This document shows, in pieces, positions 23,940 through 31,584 of a DNA stretch of 45,469 nucleotides (the stretch's first letter is position 1; each line of letters opens with the position of its first letter). This DNA is from Gemella haemolysans. Lineage in GTDB: Bacteria > Bacillota > Bacilli > Staphylococcales > Gemellaceae. The translations under genes were made by a program, and so were the position numbers. The notes under the pieces are model-generated. The model saw only the letters and a program-made list of their open reading frames with translations. It was not told where the DNA came from and searched no databases. Location: positions 1,854-47,322 of the forward strand of contig NZ_KQ959995.1 in the NCBI RefSeq assembly GCF_001553035.1, given 5' to 3'.

Positions 23940-24280
23940 GTACCTTTCGTTTTAGCAATTCTTCGAATTGCATAAAACGTTAGGTACAAAGTACGCAAGG
24001 ACGTACCAAGAAGCAAAGCGACAGCTGTAGCTGATTGGAGTACGTCTACTGCGAAGTTGCCAATTGTAATATAGTAAATTATAATGAGATTTCTAGTGCC
24101 AAAGGCACGTCGAAATCATTACGTGCAAAATACGCAAAAGGAACTAAATTTCTAAGGAACGGAGAGACGAAAGAAATTTTTAGTTCCAACTGCGAAGTGA
24201 CAATGGAATTATAAGAAACCTTATAGGAGTATCATTACGTGCAAAATATGCAAAAGTAACTAAATAAAACGTAGCAAAAT
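23940..24280 (+). repeat. Array of hairpin units with shared flanks
   Basis: No gene is seen in 23704-24480. This part holds a series of different hairpins set between similar flanks. Stems: GTACCT/AGGTAC (23940-23987, with CGTTTTA and CAATTC stems inside); ACGTACCAA with TTGG and GTACGT (24001-24045); GATTTC and GTGCC with GGCAC and GAAATC (24088-24117); GGAACTAAATTTCT with AGAAATTTTTAGTTCC (24140-24186). Left flanks read TACGCAAG, TACGCAAAAG and TATGCAAAAG; right flanks read ACTGCGAAGTTGCCAAT and ACTGCGAAGTGACAAT. TTACGTGCAAAATA occurs at about 24118 and again at 24236. Function unknown. Confidence 0.6.
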
Positions 24281-24374: not shown

Positions 24375-24403
24375 TTGACAGTTATTTTATTTTTTGATAC
24401 ACT
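24375..24403 (+). promoter_or_regulatory. Strong SigA-type promoter of the accessory cassette
   Basis: Consensus TTGACA (24375-24380) and TACACT (24398-24403) are 17 bases apart, with TG in front of the -10 box (TGATACACT). The start point is near 24410, giving a leader of about 70 bases before the first gene. Confidence 0.75.
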
Positions 24404-24480
24404 TGAGTTGGGAGAACAAAGAAGTCTTTTAGATATATGTATATTTTTTATTTTTTCAGTTATATTAGGAGAACTTCAAA

Positions 24481-24879
24481 ATGAAATTAATTATTAAGAA
24501 AATATTGGCAGTCACTTGTCTTTTGGGTATGTTTTTGTCTACTGTATATCCAGTTGCTGAAGCAAGATATTTTGGATATTTTAGTGATTTTTGGGTATAT
24601 AGATATGGTAATCAAAAAACAGGATATGTTCAAAAAACTGTGTGGAATGGTTGGTATGTCATTAATCTTGGTGCATCTGCTCGTGGAACTACAGTAATTC
24701 ATCAATTAATAGATACTTATGGTAATGGAAAGAGTGAATGGAATTATACAGAAACAGGAACTCAGAATAACTATTATACTTTTGATTGTAATTCAGGTGG
24801 TAAATATGCTTTGCAAATGCATTTAGCAAATAAAGATAGTGATAATTTGTATGGAAATTGGTCACCAGATCATTATTAA
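24481..24879 (+). CDS. Small secreted aromatic-rich protein, possible bacteriocin-like effector
   Basis: 132 residues with a clear Sec signal peptide: basic MKLIIKK, hydrophobic core, and a likely cut after YPVAEA near residue 28. The mature part of about 104 residues is rich in Tyr, Trp, Gly and Asn (FWVYRYG, TVWNGWYVINLG, ASARGTTVIHQ, LYGNWSPDHY) and has one Cys. I do not recognise a family with certainty; size, aromatic-Gly composition and genetic setting recall secreted class II-type bacteriocins such as the lactococcin 972 group, but specific motifs do not convincingly match. TATTAGGAGAAC precedes the ATG. It is followed by two membrane proteins and an ABC ATPase, a layout common in bacteriocin export or immunity. 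Confidence 0.8.
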   Translation: MKLIIKKILAVTCLLGMFLSTVYPVAEARYFGYFSDFWVYRYGNQKTGYVQKTVWNGWYVINLGASARGTTVIHQLIDTYGNGKSEWNYTETGTQNNYYTFDCNSGGKYALQMHLANKDSDNLYGNWSPDHY

Positions 24880-24961
24880 TTATTATAAATATAACTTTTA
24901 AAATACATATATTGTAATTCTTGTTCTCCTTCTATTCTTTTAAAAGGGGGATCTTTTTGTT

Positions 24962-25756
24962 ATGTTTAAAATTCCGAAAAAATATTATTTACTTTTTATT
25001 TTACTTTTTTTTGTTTTGTATTTTGCACTTATTGATGTTAAAGTTTGGTATGATTTCTTCACGTATGATATTAATGCACAAGATCTTACTATTGATGGAC
25101 GACTGGCACGTAATAAATATGTACTTTCTTATTATGATGTTCGTATCTTATTTGGTGAGTTATATAGTTATGAACTAATAGTACTTCCTATGACCTTACT
25201 TCCTAGTTTATATTATTATAATAAATTCCGTAGAAAAATAATTAAATATATAATTGGGAAAAGTGATAAAATAAAAAAATATCTATTTATATTAAAATTA
25301 AAAGTTTCAACAATACCGTTGATTATTTTTAATGTAATATTCTTTTATTACGTATTAATTAGCTATTTATTAAGAGGATTAAAAACACGTCCGGGTGCTA
25401 ACTTTGAGTTTCTTTTTGCTAAAGATAGTGTTTTAAATTACTTTAATAATTCTACATTTTGGTTTTTATTTTTGTATTGGATAAGTCACATACTGGTTAT
25501 TTTCTTAACTAGTTTAATTTTAACTGAGATACTTGATTATAATTATAATTACATAAGAGTTTTTATATTTTTCTATTTGATTTTATATATAGGAAATAGA
25601 TTTATAATTACATATATAGGACAATACTATCAACTTGATATTTCTATTTCTTGGTGTATTAATTCACAAGCTTATTTTTATGAAATAATTAGAACTTATA
25701 TTTATCTTATTTTTATTTATTTTATATTTAAACTATTTAAAAGAAAAGAGTTTTAA
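24962..25756 (+). CDS. Six-helix membrane protein, putative ABC permease subunit
   Basis: 264 residues with about six hydrophobic stretches (near residues 8-25, 70-90, 115-135, 165-190, 195-215 and 240-258), rich in Phe, Ile, Tyr and Leu and very AT-rich at DNA level. An extracytoplasmic loop after the first helix contains DVKVWYDFFTYDINAQDL. No enzyme motif is seen. AAAAGGGGGAT precedes ATG 24962. It is 2 bases upstream of a second membrane protein and close to a short ABC ATPase, so it probably forms part of an ABC exporter for the secreted protein or an immunity pump. Not assigned to a known family. Confidence 0.75.
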   Translation: MFKIPKKYYLLFILLFFVLYFALIDVKVWYDFFTYDINAQDLTIDGRLARNKYVLSYYDVRILFGELYSYELIVLPMTLLPSLYYYNKFRRKIIKYIIGKSDKIKKYLFILKLKVSTIPLIIFNVIFFYYVLISYLLRGLKTRPGANFEFLFAKDSVLNYFNNSTFWFLFLYWISHILVIFLTSLILTEILDYNYNYIRVFIFFYLILYIGNRFIITYIGQYYQLDISISWCINSQAYFYEIIRTYIYLIFIYFIFKLFKRKEF

Positions 25757-25758
25757 GT

Positions 25759-26382
25759 ATGAAAAAATTATTATCAAAATTTCAGATGAATGTTATACTG
25801 GTAATTTTACTTTTTATATTGGAAATAAAAAAATATCATGATTTATCTTACGATATACTTATAAAAAATTATATTAATAATGTATATATTTTGGAACACC
25901 AACTTAACATTACACAACTAATTTTTTTGATTAGCCTATATACGTTAATGTTGTGGAATTTTATTAATGTCTTTTCTGTTAGTTTAAATAATTTTAAAGT
26001 AATAATAAAATTTCATAGTAGAAACATAATTCAATATTATTTTAAAGTGATACTATATTTATTTAAGAATCTTTTATTTTCTTACTTTGGGTATATATTT
26101 ATTTTTAATATAATATATATTTATAAATTTAAAGAAATATGTCTTAGAAGTTTGTTAGTAGGTAATTTAGAAATAGTTAAAATATACTTTTTATTTTTTA
26201 TGATATTATTGATTAATACAGTATTTAATTTTAATAAGGTTATTGTAATGGGTTTTTGTTATTTAACAATAGTTATTTACATTGTATTTTTAAATAATAT
26301 TTCATTTGTTTATTATTATTTAATTATGATATTAGTGATATTTTTTAGTATTTTTAAAATGTATAGTACGAAAGATCTTTAG
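25759..26382 (+). CDS. Second membrane protein of the cassette, putative permease subunit
   Basis: 207 residues with about six transmembrane stretches and an extremely AT-rich sequence; starts MKKLLSKFQMNVILVILLFI. No recognisable motif. The two-base gap from the previous gene suggests tight co-translation, and the two proteins could be the unlike membrane halves of one ABC transporter. Codon choice, with many ATA and TTA, is much more AT-biased than the ribosomal genes nearby, which points to horizontal acquisition, though membrane proteins always lean this way. Confidence 0.72.
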   Translation: MKKLLSKFQMNVILVILLFILEIKKYHDLSYDILIKNYINNVYILEHQLNITQLIFLISLYTLMLWNFINVFSVSLNNFKVIIKFHSRNIIQYYFKVILYLFKNLLFSYFGYIFIFNIIYIYKFKEICLRSLLVGNLEIVKIYFLFFMILLINTVFNFNKVIVMGFCYLTIVIYIVFLNNISFVYYYLIMILVIFFSIFKMYSTKDL

Positions 26383-26393
26383 GAGGGATTAAT

Positions 26394-26996
26394 ATGTTAG
26401 AAATAAAAAATGGTTATAAAAGATTTAATGGTAAGTATATATTTGAAAATTATTCGATAAAATTTGAAAATGGAAAAATTTATGGAGTAACAGGAAAAAA
26501 TGGGAAAGGGAAAACACTTCTTTTAAAGATATTATGCGGATATAGTGTTTTAACTAAGGGTTCTGTTTATCAAGATACTGTAAAACTTCGTAATAAATTT
26601 AATTTTATAAAAAATGCAGGAATTGTAATAGAAAAACCAGATTTCATAGAAAATTATACTTTATACGATAATTTAAATACTATTAAGATGTTAAGCGATA
26701 ATAAAGATATTAATCTTGATTTTTGGATTGAATTTTATGATTTATTCGAGCATAAGGACAAGAAATACAAGGATCTTTCGTTAGGTACAAAACAAAAAGT
26801 ATTGATTATTCAGGCATTCATGACAAATCCTGATATATTAATACTAGATGAATGTTTCAATGGATTAGATGAAAAAAGTCATACTAAAACTAAAGAATAT
26901 TTAAAAAACTATATTAACGATAATAGATTGATTATTTTAACTTCACATATCAAAGATGATATAGAGGAGTTATGTGATGAATTTATAGAATTATAA
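26394..26996 (+). CDS. Short ABC transporter ATP-binding protein
   Basis: Cytoplasmic ATPase of 200 residues with all core motifs: Walker A GVTGKNGKGKTLLLK (about residues 32-46), signature LSLGTKQK, Walker B ILILDECFNGLDE, and the H-loop His in LTSHIKDD. The signature is LSLGT instead of LSGGQ, as in many bacitracin- or lantibiotic-type self-protection ATPases. It lacks the long C-terminal extension of most drug-export ATPases. AGGAGGGAT is upstream. It closes the cassette and presumably powers the two membrane proteins before it. Confidence 0.88.
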   Translation: MLEIKNGYKRFNGKYIFENYSIKFENGKIYGVTGKNGKGKTLLLKILCGYSVLTKGSVYQDTVKLRNKFNFIKNAGIVIEKPDFIENYTLYDNLNTIKMLSDNKDINLDFWIEFYDLFEHKDKKYKDLSLGTKQKVLIIQAFMTNPDILILDECFNGLDEKSHTKTKEYLKNYINDNRLIILTSHIKDDIEELCDEFIEL

Positions 26997-27104
26997 TTAT
27001 ATCACTATTAGTAATAAGGATATAAGTACAGTATTAACAAAGTTATAGTGTGAACGCATATAAAAATAATAATTATAAAATTACTCTTTAACCTTTGAAT
27101 CTGT

Positions 27105-27232
27105 GAAATTTAATGATTAACTCATAGTCAAGACTGCGAGTTAGTGTTAAGATTTTTAGAATCTAATAAATTTTGAAGGGGTGATTCAACAAAATCTTGT
27201 TTCTCTGAAATCAAGATTTTTGAGTCACTCCC
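27105..27232 (+). repeat. Dispersed two-hairpin repeat, copy 3 (first module degenerate)
   Basis: The 450-base gap between the ABC cassette and thrE holds this repeat plus the thrE promoter. AACTCATAG and TCTAATAAA of the first module remain, and the second module is well kept: GGGGTGATTCAACAAAATC paired with GATTTTTGAGTCACTCCC at 27215-27232. The second module alone could act as a terminator-like hairpin for the cassette. Confidence 0.65.
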
Positions 27233-28692: not shown

Positions 28693-28740
28693 AAGATATA
28701 ATAATTGTTTCTTTGAAATTTATTATTATATCTTATTTTT
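28693..28740 (+). terminator. Rho-independent terminator after the ThrE pair
   Basis: AAGATATAATAAT (28693-28705) pairs with ATTATTATATCTT (28722-28734), followed by a T-rich run. Confidence 0.75.
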
Positions 28741-28743
28741 TTA

Positions 28744-28772
28744 TTGCATTGTGTGGTGATGTATGGTACACT
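28744..28772 (+). promoter_or_regulatory. Promoter of the GntR-ABC operon
   Basis: TTGCAT (28744-28749) and TACACT (28767-28772) with 17-base spacing. The -10 box lies inside the first copy of a repeated operator-like sequence. Confidence 0.65.
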
Positions 28773-28808
28773 TTAAGTAGAAGGTGTATGGCGATGTATG
28801 GTACACTT
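28758..28808 (+). promoter_or_regulatory. Duplicated operator-like site for the GntR regulator
   Basis: GATGTATGGTACACTT occurs twice, at 28758-28773 and 28793-28808, 35 bases apart. With the sequence before it, the second copy gives GTGTA, 13 bases, TACAC, an inverted pair very like the YtrA operator of Bacillus subtilis (AGTGTA-N13-TACACT). One copy covers the -10 box and one lies after the start point, so binding should block transcription. Confidence 0.65.
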
Positions 28809-28823
28809 AGGAAGGAGGTCACT

Positions 28824-29192
28824 ATGTTTCAAATTGATTCATTATCAGAGAAACCGATTTATAAACAAATAGTAGATCAAATCAAGTCTATGATAAGCAA
28901 AAATCTATTACAGGAGGGAGATAAATTACCATCGGTAAGAGAATTTTCGAAAATGCTTAGTGTTAATGTTAGTACAATTCAAAAAGCATTTCAGCAGTTA
29001 GAAAGTGAAAAGATAATTACAACAATAGTAGGGAGAGGTACTTTTATTACAAATAATTTTGATAATATTGTTCCAAATTATGAACTAATAGATTCGATAA
29101 TTGAGGATTTAGTTAGGGAAGTAAAAATAAGAGGAATCTCGGAAGAAGATTTATTAGAAAAAATTAAGTTAGAATTTCGAAAGGGTGATTAA
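28824..29192 (+). CDS. GntR-family regulator, YtrA subfamily
   Basis: Short 122-residue transcription repressor. The N-terminal winged helix is seen in PIYKQIVDQIKSMI, LPSVREFSKMLSVNVSTIQK and GRGTFI, and the short helical tail of about 45 residues is typical of YtrA-type members that control an adjoining ABC transporter. ATG at 28824 follows GGAAGGAGGTC; a longer frame from 28713 crosses the promoter and is not used. It probably represses its own operon through the duplicated sites just upstream. The inducing signal is unknown; in relatives it is cell-wall antibiotics. Confidence 0.88.
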   Translation: MFQIDSLSEKPIYKQIVDQIKSMISKNLLQEGDKLPSVREFSKMLSVNVSTIQKAFQQLESEKIITTIVGRGTFITNNFDNIVPNYELIDSIIEDLVREVKIRGISEEDLLEKIKLEFRKGD

Positions 29193-29194
29193 TT

Positions 29195-29341
29195 ATGGAT
29201 AATGAGAAGAAGATTGATGGAAAGTTAAAAGAATTAATCATGGAATGGAAATTTTTAGGATTATCGATGGAGAAGTTATGTGAAGTCATTTTAGAAAAGA
29301 TAAAGGAGGAAAACTATGAAGCTTACGATAGAAAAAATTAA
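29195..29341 (+). CDS. Small 48-residue protein in the GntR-ABC operon
   Basis: ATG at 29195, two bases after the GntR stop, encodes a charged helical peptide (MDNEKKIDGKLKELIMEWKF, then LGLSMEKLCEVILEKIKEEN). It ends by overlapping the ATPase start by 26 bases, so it could couple translation of regulator and ATPase. The ribosome site AAAGGGTGA is fair. No family recognised; it could be a real small protein or only a translated spacer. Confidence 0.5.
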   Translation: MDNEKKIDGKLKELIMEWKFLGLSMEKLCEVILEKIKEENYEAYDRKN

Positions 29342-30182
29342 TAAAAAATTTTCCAAAAAGATAGTATTAAATAATGTTAGTTTTTCTGTAACTACAGGAG
29401 AAATTGTAGCACTTGTTGGTAGAAATGGAAGTGGGAAAACAACATTATTAAAGATACTATCAGGAATATATAGTAAAGATTCTGGTGAAATAGGAATTGA
29501 AGGAATAGATAATAAAAATATAAGAAAACAACTGATTTATATACCGGATAGATTCGATTATTTTAAAAATTCTAAAATTAAAAAGGTTTGTGAGTTTTAT
29601 AAGTTAGCTTATGAAAATTTTGATGAACAATATTTTAAAACAGAATTAGAAAAAATTAAATTATCACAAACCAGCAGATTATCTGAATTATCAAAAGGAC
29701 AACTAGCTATTTTTAGTTTGATTTTGGGGATTTCATGCCGAACTAAGTTTATCCTCTTAGATGAACCACTAGATGGGATAGATGTAATAAATACTAAAAA
29801 GATAGTTGATTATATTTTGGATGCTCAAAGTGATGGAATTGGGTTATTAATTAGTAGTCATCAATTAAATTCTTTGGAAAACATAAGTGATAAGGTTGTC
29901 TATTTAGATGATGGAGTTGGAGTTAGTGAAGAAATTAATAAGGATGAGTATAGTAAATATCAATTAGTGTACCAAGATAAAATACCAGCGGAGTTACGTA
30001 ACAATCCTGATGTAAGAATTATTAGTAATATTGGAAGAGTCTATGTGGTTATTATGAAGGGAAGTTATGATGCTACTCATGATATTATTCAAGATAAAGA
30101 TCTTCTTCAATATGATAAACTCCCTATTGCATTAGAGGATATCTTTTTATTAAATAGTAAGGGGGAAGATGAAAATGTGTAA
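29316..30182 (+). CDS. ABC transporter ATP-binding protein
   Basis: 288-residue ATPase with Walker A ALVGRNGSGKTT (about residues 32-43), signature LSKGQ, Walker B FILLDEPLDGID and the H-loop SSHQL. The C-terminal 80 residues are a family-specific extension. AAGGAGGAAA lies upstream of ATG 29316. It overlaps the permease gene by a few bases. Regulator-ATPase-permease order is that of YtrA-type operons (multidrug or wall-stress transport), so the role is probably stress-related export. Confidence 0.9.
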   Translation: MKLTIEKINKKFSKKIVLNNVSFSVTTGEIVALVGRNGSGKTTLLKILSGIYSKDSGEIGIEGIDNKNIRKQLIYIPDRFDYFKNSKIKKVCEFYKLAYENFDEQYFKTELEKIKLSQTSRLSELSKGQLAIFSLILGISCRTKFILLDEPLDGIDVINTKKIVDYILDAQSDGIGLLISSHQLNSLENISDKVVYLDDGVGVSEEINKDEYSKYQLVYQDKIPAELRNNPDVRIISNIGRVYVVIMKGSYDATHDIIQDKDLLQYDKLPIALEDIFLLNSKGEDENV

Positions 30183-31584
30183 AGATATTTTAAAAATTAT
30201 TCGTATATATTTGAAACAATATTCAATTATGTTAGTTATACTATTAATTGCCTTCTCAACATTTGCTGCTACAACTACTAATAAACAACTAAATGAATTG
30301 AAAAATGGAGTTGCAGCTTATGATTTTCAATTAACAACAGGAATAGCAAAGGAATTGGAAATAAGAAAAGGTGCATCTAATGATGAATTAAATCAAAAAA
30401 CACACGAACTGTATAAGTTGAAAGAAGAATATCAGAAAAATTATAAAGAAAAATTATCAAAAGAAAAATTAGATGAGATGAAACATTCTTATGCGGTTGG
30501 AGCATATTTACATAATTTTCCTAGTACAGCATTATGGACATTTTATACTAATAATGAGGATCTAAATGTACTTACAGGTGGAGGAAGTGAAAAATACAAA
30601 CAGTACTTAACTGAAGAAGAATTGAATAACGTTCCTAAGTATAAAGAATGGTCACGAATGCAGCCGGGAAGCAAGGAGTATTTTGATAAACAAGAAGAAC
30701 TGGATAAATTATACCCTCCAGCGCTAGATATTAGTAATACAAAAACATTAACTTTCTTAAAAGAAAATCTAGAAGCTAGTAAGGTTAAGTTAAAAGAAAC
30801 TCTGTTTAACGAGGGAACTAATATTGGTTATTATATTTTGATAACTTTAATCCCGTTGTTAATCTTTGGAGATGAATACCATACTAATTTTGGTAAATTT
30901 GTAGCGAGCTTACCTTACGAAAAAGAGAAAGTATATTTTGCAAAAGTAATTCTATCGTTCTTAATTTTAATAGTTACTTATATTTTAACAGGACTAGCTA
31001 ATATAGCGGTTATAAGTAATAGTTTGTTAGGAGAAATCTATAACGTGCCAGCGGTACTTGAAATAAATAATAAAATATATATACTGGGAATAGGTTTAGT
31101 ATTACTAGGAGCTATCTTATCGAGTTTTTGTGGAAATATATTGAGTATAGGCGTAATGTATATTCCTGCTCTTACACTGATATATTATCCATTGGGAGTA
31201 TGGGTTGTTATAGGGAAATTGTTCGTTGTAGATTATTTTTCAAATGAGCCGTTTCTTGATAATATACCAAGGATGCCAATATTTTATTATTTCGGCTACA
31301 CTCCTTGGAAGAATATTATTATTTACCTAGTTATTTTAACAATAATTATGCTGTTAGCAAGTAAGGTTTATAAAAAGCATAATGTAGAAAAAGAAGGTGA
31401 ATTTTTCATAATAGAAAGAGTTTCATTAGTAGGATATTTAATATTATTAATGGGAGTATTCGCATCCACATTATTAGTATTAGTAGACATATTCGGCATT
31501 AATCAAATCGTTGCTCTAGCGCTAACAATATTATTAGTACCAGCTGTTCTTTGGAAGTTGGTTAAAACAAAGATTAGAATATAA
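30175..31584 (+). CDS. ABC transporter permease, YtrC/D-like
   Basis: Membrane protein of 469 residues from ATG 30175 (an in-frame ATG lies six bases before it; the later one has a better distance to AAGGGGGAAG). One helix near the N-terminus (residues 13-32), a large external domain of about 170 residues with the segments LPYEKEKVYFAK and ELEIRKGASNDEL around it, and then about six to seven helices. The external domain between first and second helix is typical of ABC-2 type permeases in wall-stress systems. It overlaps the ATPase gene and ends the operon before a terminator. Confidence 0.82.
   Translation: MCKDILKIIRIYLKQYSIMLVILLIAFSTFAATTTNKQLNELKNGVAAYDFQLTTGIAKELEIRKGASNDELNQKTHELYKLKEEYQKNYKEKLSKEKLDEMKHSYAVGAYLHNFPSTALWTFYTNNEDLNVLTGGGSEKYKQYLTEEELNNVPKYKEWSRMQPGSKEYFDKQEELDKLYPPALDISNTKTLTFLKENLEASKVKLKETLFNEGTNIGYYILITLIPLLIFGDEYHTNFGKFVASLPYEKEKVYFAKVILSFLILIVTYILTGLANIAVISNSLLGEIYNVPAVLEINNKIYILGIGLVLLGAILSSFCGNILSIGVMYIPALTLIYYPLGVWVVIGKLFVVDYFSNEPFLDNIPRMPIFYYFGYTPWKNIIIYLVILTIIMLLASKVYKKHNVEKEGEFFIIERVSLVGYLILLMGVFASTLLVLVDIFGINQIVALALTILLVPAVLWKLVKTKIRI

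What the first reader, a model, noticed from the sequence alone, without database searches (positions are those of the whole stretch)
24375..26996. Unrecognised secreted-protein plus ABC transporter cassette
A strong promoter drives a 132-residue secreted, Tyr/Trp/Gly-rich protein, followed by two very AT-rich six-helix proteins and a short ABC ATPase with an LSLGT signature. Layout fits bacteriocin production with export or self-immunity, but the effector does not match a family I can name and the membrane proteins look unlike the usual large bacteriocin-associated protein. Its composition differs from neighbours and it is bordered by repeats, suggesting mobile accessory DNA.
Basis: partly seen in the sequence, partly recalled or inferred. 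Interest (0 to 1): 0.8.

Follow-up and report, generated by a model that had tools for sequence, protein, structure and literature searches.

The report
Secreted-protein bacteriocin-like cassette with ABC immunity
Some Gemella bacteria, and some relatives inferred to be streptococci, carry a four-gene cassette: an unnamed small secreted protein followed by a three-part ABC transporter, which most likely makes an antibacterial protein and protects its maker from it.

Summary
In a Gemella chromosome, window 24481-26996 holds four co-directional genes: a 132-aa Sec-secreted protein, two dissimilar six-helix membrane proteins and a 200-aa ABC ATPase. The secreted protein matches no Pfam, NCBIfam, PADLOC, PHROG or PDB family. 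Profile searches found it in 3 Gemella genomes, truncated in Gemella sp. GH3, and full-length in 11 of 284 genomes of another genus (inferred Streptococcus). In all 11 it heads the same four-gene cassette, some near class II bacteriocin-like genes and LytTR or RNPP-type regulators. Elsewhere the secreted gene is a relic or absent while transporter genes remain, as reported for pneumococcal streptococcins.

Best reading (confidence about 0.6): a Sec-exported protein bacteriocin with a LanFEG-like (one ATPase, two permeases) self-protection transporter. It is not lactococcin 972. The permeases match no LanE/LanG model, so it works like LanFEG but is not shown to be a member. Against: several relatives keep the secreted gene while the transporter is broken, and no activity is known. 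Low GC is not evidence of foreign DNA (GC3 equals the neighbours'). The flanking repeats belong to the genus's rplQ-downstream array. An unassigned family and a new variant of a known kind.

The parts
24375..24403 (+). Promoter-like site TTGACA-17-TACACT upstream of the secreted-protein gene
   Evidence: a TTGACA..TATAAT pair at the equivalent place in G002. Consensus match only.
24481..24879 (+). Secreted protein gene, 132 aa (putative bacteriocin); signal peptide codons 24481-24564 (inferred cleavage after AEA), mature part about 104 aa with C-terminal GNWSPDHY
   Evidence: homologs; dN/dS 0.06
24962..25756 (+). Permease subunit 1, 264 aa, six hydropathy peaks
   Evidence: relatives
25759..26382 (+). 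Permease subunit 2, 207 aa, six hydropathy peaks
26394..26996 (+). ABC ATPase, 200 aa, LSLGT signature, Glu in the Q-loop position (GIVIEKP)
   Evidence: PF00005 8.8e-23, TIGR03740 8e-36 below cut-off, alignments
24115..24265 (.). Two 35-nt direct repeats (24115-24149, 24231-24265) of the intergenic repeat array downstream of rplQ; flank, not part of the function
27075..27164 (.). Repeat module on the far side of the cassette, about 90% identical to modules in the rplQ-downstream array of cassette-free G004 and G005

Best explanation
The cassette encodes a protein bacteriocin and its self-protection. The 132-aa precursor is exported through Sec by its own signal peptide and cleaved after AEA (inferred from sequence), releasing a Tyr/Trp/Gly-rich mature protein of about 104 aa that acts on the envelope of competing, probably related, Gram-positive cells (inferred). 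The next three genes form a LanFEG-like ABC transporter, two different six-helix permeases and one short ATPase, that removes the protein from the producer's own membrane or shields its target (inferred). Shown here: gene structure, purifying selection, linkage of effector to transporter in two genera, bacteriocin-type neighbourhoods of some copies, and repeated loss of the effector with transporter genes left behind. Not shown: killing, immunity, target and fold.
For: Sec signal peptide without a lipobox in every effector. All 11 full-length homologs outside Gemella are the first gene of the same effector-permease1-permease2-ATPase cassette, intact or with recognisable broken parts. Some lie near double-glycine bacteriocin-like peptides (L091, L098, L099), LytTR response regulators (L095, L099) or an RNPP-type regulator (L100). 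Effector relics stand beside retained transporter genes in G002, G001 and G006, and G311 and G799 have the three transporter genes with no effector found upstream. The same pattern is reported for pneumococcal streptococcins: most partial clusters lack the bacteriocin but keep immunity and/or transporter genes (PMC6120550), and streptococcin B is active (PMC11796350). One ATPase plus two dissimilar permeases is the LanFEG make-up, mostly self-immunity (PMC4239024); the ATPase's best model is lantibiotic protection, TIGR03740, 8e-36, below its cut-off.
Against: No activity data. Several genomes keep an intact effector ORF with a damaged transporter: G867, insertion sequences in permease 1 and the ATPase; G843, frameshifted ATPase; G926, frameshift near the start of permease 1. 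In the streptococcal set the effector is more conserved (mean 78%) than its transporter (55/37/60%), unusual for a toxin. Retained transporter genes at the second Gemella locus are themselves partly broken. The permeases match no LanE/LanG model.
Confidence: 0.6

Rival explanations
1. A peptide-resistance module: the transporter protects against foreign antimicrobial peptides and the secreted protein is its extracellular binding partner, sensor or decoy, not a toxin.
For: LanFEG-type transporters occur in non-producers and some use partner proteins such as LanI or NukH (PMC4239024); the effector is strongly conserved; transporters occur without it.
Against: The protein is neither a lipoprotein nor membrane-anchored, unlike LanI and NukH. 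It is lost while transporter genes remain. Some copies lie among bacteriocin-like genes.
Confidence: 0.15
2. The secreted protein acts on something other than competing bacteria, for example the own cell wall, adhesion or the animal host, and the transporter serves the same envelope process.
For: Conservation of the mature protein and dN/dS 0.06; intact effector genes beside broken transporters.
Against: Patchy presence (3 of 9 genomes of the window's genus; 11 of 284 in the other genus) and repeated loss argue against a housekeeping role. There is no cell-wall anchor motif.
Confidence: 0.12
3. The ABC transporter exports the secreted protein or another peptide from the locus instead of giving immunity.
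For: In lactococcin 972-type clusters the B and C products are predicted immunity and transport proteins without experimental proof (PMC11796350); TIGR03608, a putative bacteriocin export ATPase, also hits the ATPase (8e-24).
Against: The protein has a Sec-type signal peptide. No peptidase domain was found in the ATPase, and the closest named ATPase model is protective.
Confidence: 0.08

Closest known systems
LanFEG three-component self-immunity ABC transporters (NisFEG, EpiFEG, NukFEG; ATPase model TIGR03740)
   Same: One short ATPase and two different permeases of about 200-260 aa, linked to a secreted antimicrobial gene (here putative); LanFEG make-up and role as in PMC4239024.
   Different: The permeases match no LanE/LanG model. 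The Glu in the Q-loop, typical of LanF to my knowledge, is present in Gemella, L075, L100 and L101 but is Gly in most streptococcal copies. No lanthipeptide enzymes were seen, and the effector is an unmodified-looking Sec-secreted protein.
Lactococcin 972 / streptococcin systems (PF09683, TIGR03608, streptococcin B ScbABC)
   Same: A Sec-secreted, unmodified-looking protein bacteriocin followed by ABC transporter genes; losses that leave transporter/immunity genes behind (PMC6120550, PMC11796350).
   Different: The effector does not match PF09683, and profile comparison aligns only the signal peptide. It is longer (mature about 104 aa) and shares none of the W-x-YG...W-S-YY...H...ST core seen in the staphylococcal members. 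Two small permeases replace the single large membrane protein.
BcrAB-type bacitracin transporters
   Same: Related short-permease ABC layout; small ABC ATPase.
   Different: Two different permeases instead of one; BcrA is 280-320 aa (PMC4239024) against 200 aa here; linked to a secreted protein.

Membership tests
Lactococcin 972 (PF09683) | Sequence match to the family profile | tested here: not met
   No Pfam hit at E<=10; the PF09683 search of the order rings in 24 staphylococcal-type relatives and in none of the Gemella genomes shown; hhalign 14% and 20% probability, signal peptide region only
Lactococcin 972 (PF09683) | Sec signal peptide and downstream ABC transporter genes | tested here: met
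   gene order
LanFEG immunity transporter | One ATPase and two dissimilar permeases encoded together | tested here: met
   same order in both genera; definition PMC4239024
LanFEG immunity transporter | ATPase of the LanF family (TIGR03740) | tested here: inconclusive
   Best of all NCBIfam models, 8e-36, but 123.8 bits against a cut-off of 309.75
LanFEG immunity transporter | Permeases of the LanE / LanG families | tested here: not met
   No such model among NCBIfam or Pfam hits for Gemella or streptococcal permeases
LanFEG immunity transporter | Glu in place of Gln in the Q-loop (E-loop; from own knowledge) | tested here: inconclusive
   Glu in all Gemella copies, L075, L100 and L101; Gly in most streptococcal copies
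LanFEG immunity transporter | Confers immunity to the linked antimicrobial | not testable with these tools
   Needs an experiment
Bacteriocin | Ribosomal protein, secreted, encoded with a protective gene | tested here: inconclusive
   Secretion signal and linked transporter present; protection not shown
Bacteriocin | Kills or inhibits other bacteria | not testable with these tools
   No activity data

The most novel reading that the evidence does not exclude
A previously undescribed family of Sec-secreted protein bacteriocins (C-terminal G-x-W-S-P-D motif) shared by Gemella and streptococci, each with a three-component transporter diverged from LanFEG, possibly switched on with competence in streptococci (CGAAT / TACGAATA-like motif about 49 nt upstream of most copies).
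Probability: 0.42. Interest if true: 0.7.

Novelty: new variant of a known kind. Interest (0 to 1): 0.57.

Why it matters
If true, it adds an unassigned protein-bacteriocin family to Gemella and streptococci, bacteria that share the mouth and upper airway. It makes genetic tests easy, because intact, effector-less and transporter-damaged versions exist naturally, and it predicts cross-protection or cross-killing between Gemella and streptococci. The orphan transporter genes would be testable examples of immunity kept after the weapon is lost.

Tried and rejected
Lactococcin 972 membership: rejected. Foreign origin from low GC: rejected, GC3 is the same as in the neighbours. Plasmid or phage carriage: no match to the Gemella or streptococcal effector and none in viral contigs. 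Weak class-wide hits of the first effector profile: treated as chance, with broken frames or only a signal peptide. A Pfam hit of one streptococcal effector to Botulinum_HA-17 (E 0.015, below the gathering cut-off, only one of the two scanned): treated as chance. Permease 1: pLDDT 61, no Foldseek hit at E<=0.001. ComE and ComR boxes upstream of the effectors: none found with the patterns tried. PDB sequence searches: nothing significant for effector or permease 1. Distance correlations between effector and transporter genes are weak (0.16-0.62), so no coevolution claim is made.

Full report
WHAT IS THERE. The window is a Gemella chromosome segment (G000, 1.89 Mb; a homolog-bearing relative of the same family is Gemella sp. 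GH3). Between rplQ and a thrE pair lie four + strand genes: 24481-24879, 24962-25756, 25759-26382 and 26394-26996. The first encodes 132 aa with a signal peptide ending AEA and a Tyr/Gly/Trp-rich mature part. The next two have six hydropathy peaks each. The last is an ABC ATPase (PF00005 8.8e-23). A TTGACA-17-TACACT element is at 24375-24403, and a TTGACA..TATAAT element is at the equivalent place in G002. All four genes show purifying selection between G000 and G002 (dN/dS 0.06-0.16).

NO NAMED FAMILY. The effector gives no hit in Pfam or NCBIfam (E<=10) or PADLOC. The wider family gives nothing convincing in Pfam, NCBIfam, PDB sequences or PHROGs. The permeases match no model beyond chance-level hits. 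The ATPase's best model is TIGR03740, lantibiotic protection (8e-36, below its cut-off), followed by other exporters.

RELATIVES IN GEMELLA. The effector is in G000, G003 (identical) and G002 (89%), and truncated in GH3. In G002 the cassette lies elsewhere, between a DEAD-box helicase gene and deoC, so it is not tied to one site. Permease 1 revealed a second, diverged locus beside dtd and an amidase-like gene in G002, G006 and G001. Upstream of it the effector survives only as relics: the C-terminus GNSGFDDIYGTWSPDHY in G002, and signal-peptide pieces in G001 and G006. These loci are themselves partly broken: a stop in the G002 permease 1, and a split permease 2 in G006. In GH3 no permease ORF remains between effector and ATPase, and the ATPase is split.

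RELATIVES OUTSIDE GEMELLA. A search with the permease profile found the three transporter genes in G311 (E 1e-16) between der and secA, with no effector upstream, and in G799. A search with the effector profile in the 284 genomes of that genus found 11 homologs at 2e-7 to 5e-14. Every homolog is the first gene of the same effector-permease1-permease2-ATPase cassette, most between era/NUDIX and mutM. Across 13 sequences 28 columns are invariant, including G, W, S and D of the G-x-W-S-P-D end motif. Near some copies lie double-glycine bacteriocin-like peptides, LytTR response regulators and an RNPP-type regulator.

INTERPRETATION. A freely secreted protein whose gene is followed by a small three-subunit ABC transporter, whose loss can leave the transporter genes behind, and which sometimes sits among bacteriocin genes, is best explained as a bacteriocin with self-protection. 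The transporter's make-up is that of LanFEG systems, which are mostly self-immunity (PMC4239024) and release peptides into the medium (PMC7038271). The pattern 'effector lost, transporter kept' is described for pneumococcal streptococcins (PMC6120550), of which streptococcin B is active (PMC11796350).

WHAT SPEAKS AGAINST. In G867 insertion sequences interrupt permease 1 and the ATPase while the effector is intact. In G843 the ATPase, and in G926 the start of permease 1, are frameshifted. Either the effector is not always expressed or lethal, or some of these are sequencing errors, or another immunity exists. Within the streptococcal set the effector is more conserved than its transporter, unusual for a toxin. 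The Glu in the Q-loop, typical of LanF to my knowledge, is present in Gemella and some relatives but is Gly in most streptococcal copies.

MOBILITY. The composition argument fails: GC3 of all four genes is that of ribosomal neighbours. The repeats are real, but they are modules of an intergenic array that also lies downstream of rplQ in cassette-free G004 and G005. Other genes (LPxTG-type surface proteins, a peptidase-like gene, a thioredoxin-like gene) occupy that interval in relatives. The interval behaves as an accessory hotspot; no integrase or transposase was seen with the window's cassette.

VERDICT. It is an unassigned protein-bacteriocin-like family with a LanFEG-like but divergent transporter: a new variant of a known kind. 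The literature search covered open-access papers only, so an earlier description elsewhere cannot be excluded.

Noticed in passing
window 23950-24265 and 27075-27164: Mosaic intergenic repeats downstream of rplQ, present as arrays in G004, G005 and G008, on both sides of the cassette here; the rplQ-thrE interval holds different accessory genes in different Gemella genomes.
   Followed up: partly
L091-L099, about 49 nt upstream of the streptococcal effector start: Aligned CGAAT-type motif in 8 of 11 copies, exact TACGAATA (com-box-like) in L091; L101 has TTCGAATA at -81. Possible ComX/SigX control; not tested statistically.
   Followed up: partly
L097 (G867): Insertion sequences interrupt permease 1 and the ATPase while the effector ORF is intact: a natural test of whether the effector is harmful without its transporter.
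   Followed up: partly
window 28713-31584: GntR-type regulator followed by an ABC ATPase (29316-30182) and a membrane protein: a separate ABC system, with Asp in the Q-loop position.
   Followed up: no
L091 8187-8402, L098 8505-8807, L099 10351-10497 (oriented as): Double-glycine bacteriocin- or pheromone-like peptides near streptococcal cassettes.
   Followed up: partly
literature: Gemella haemolysans supernatant contains an unidentified heat-labile protein that inhibits Porphyromonas gingivalis (PMC8175725); nothing links it to this cassette.
   Followed up: no
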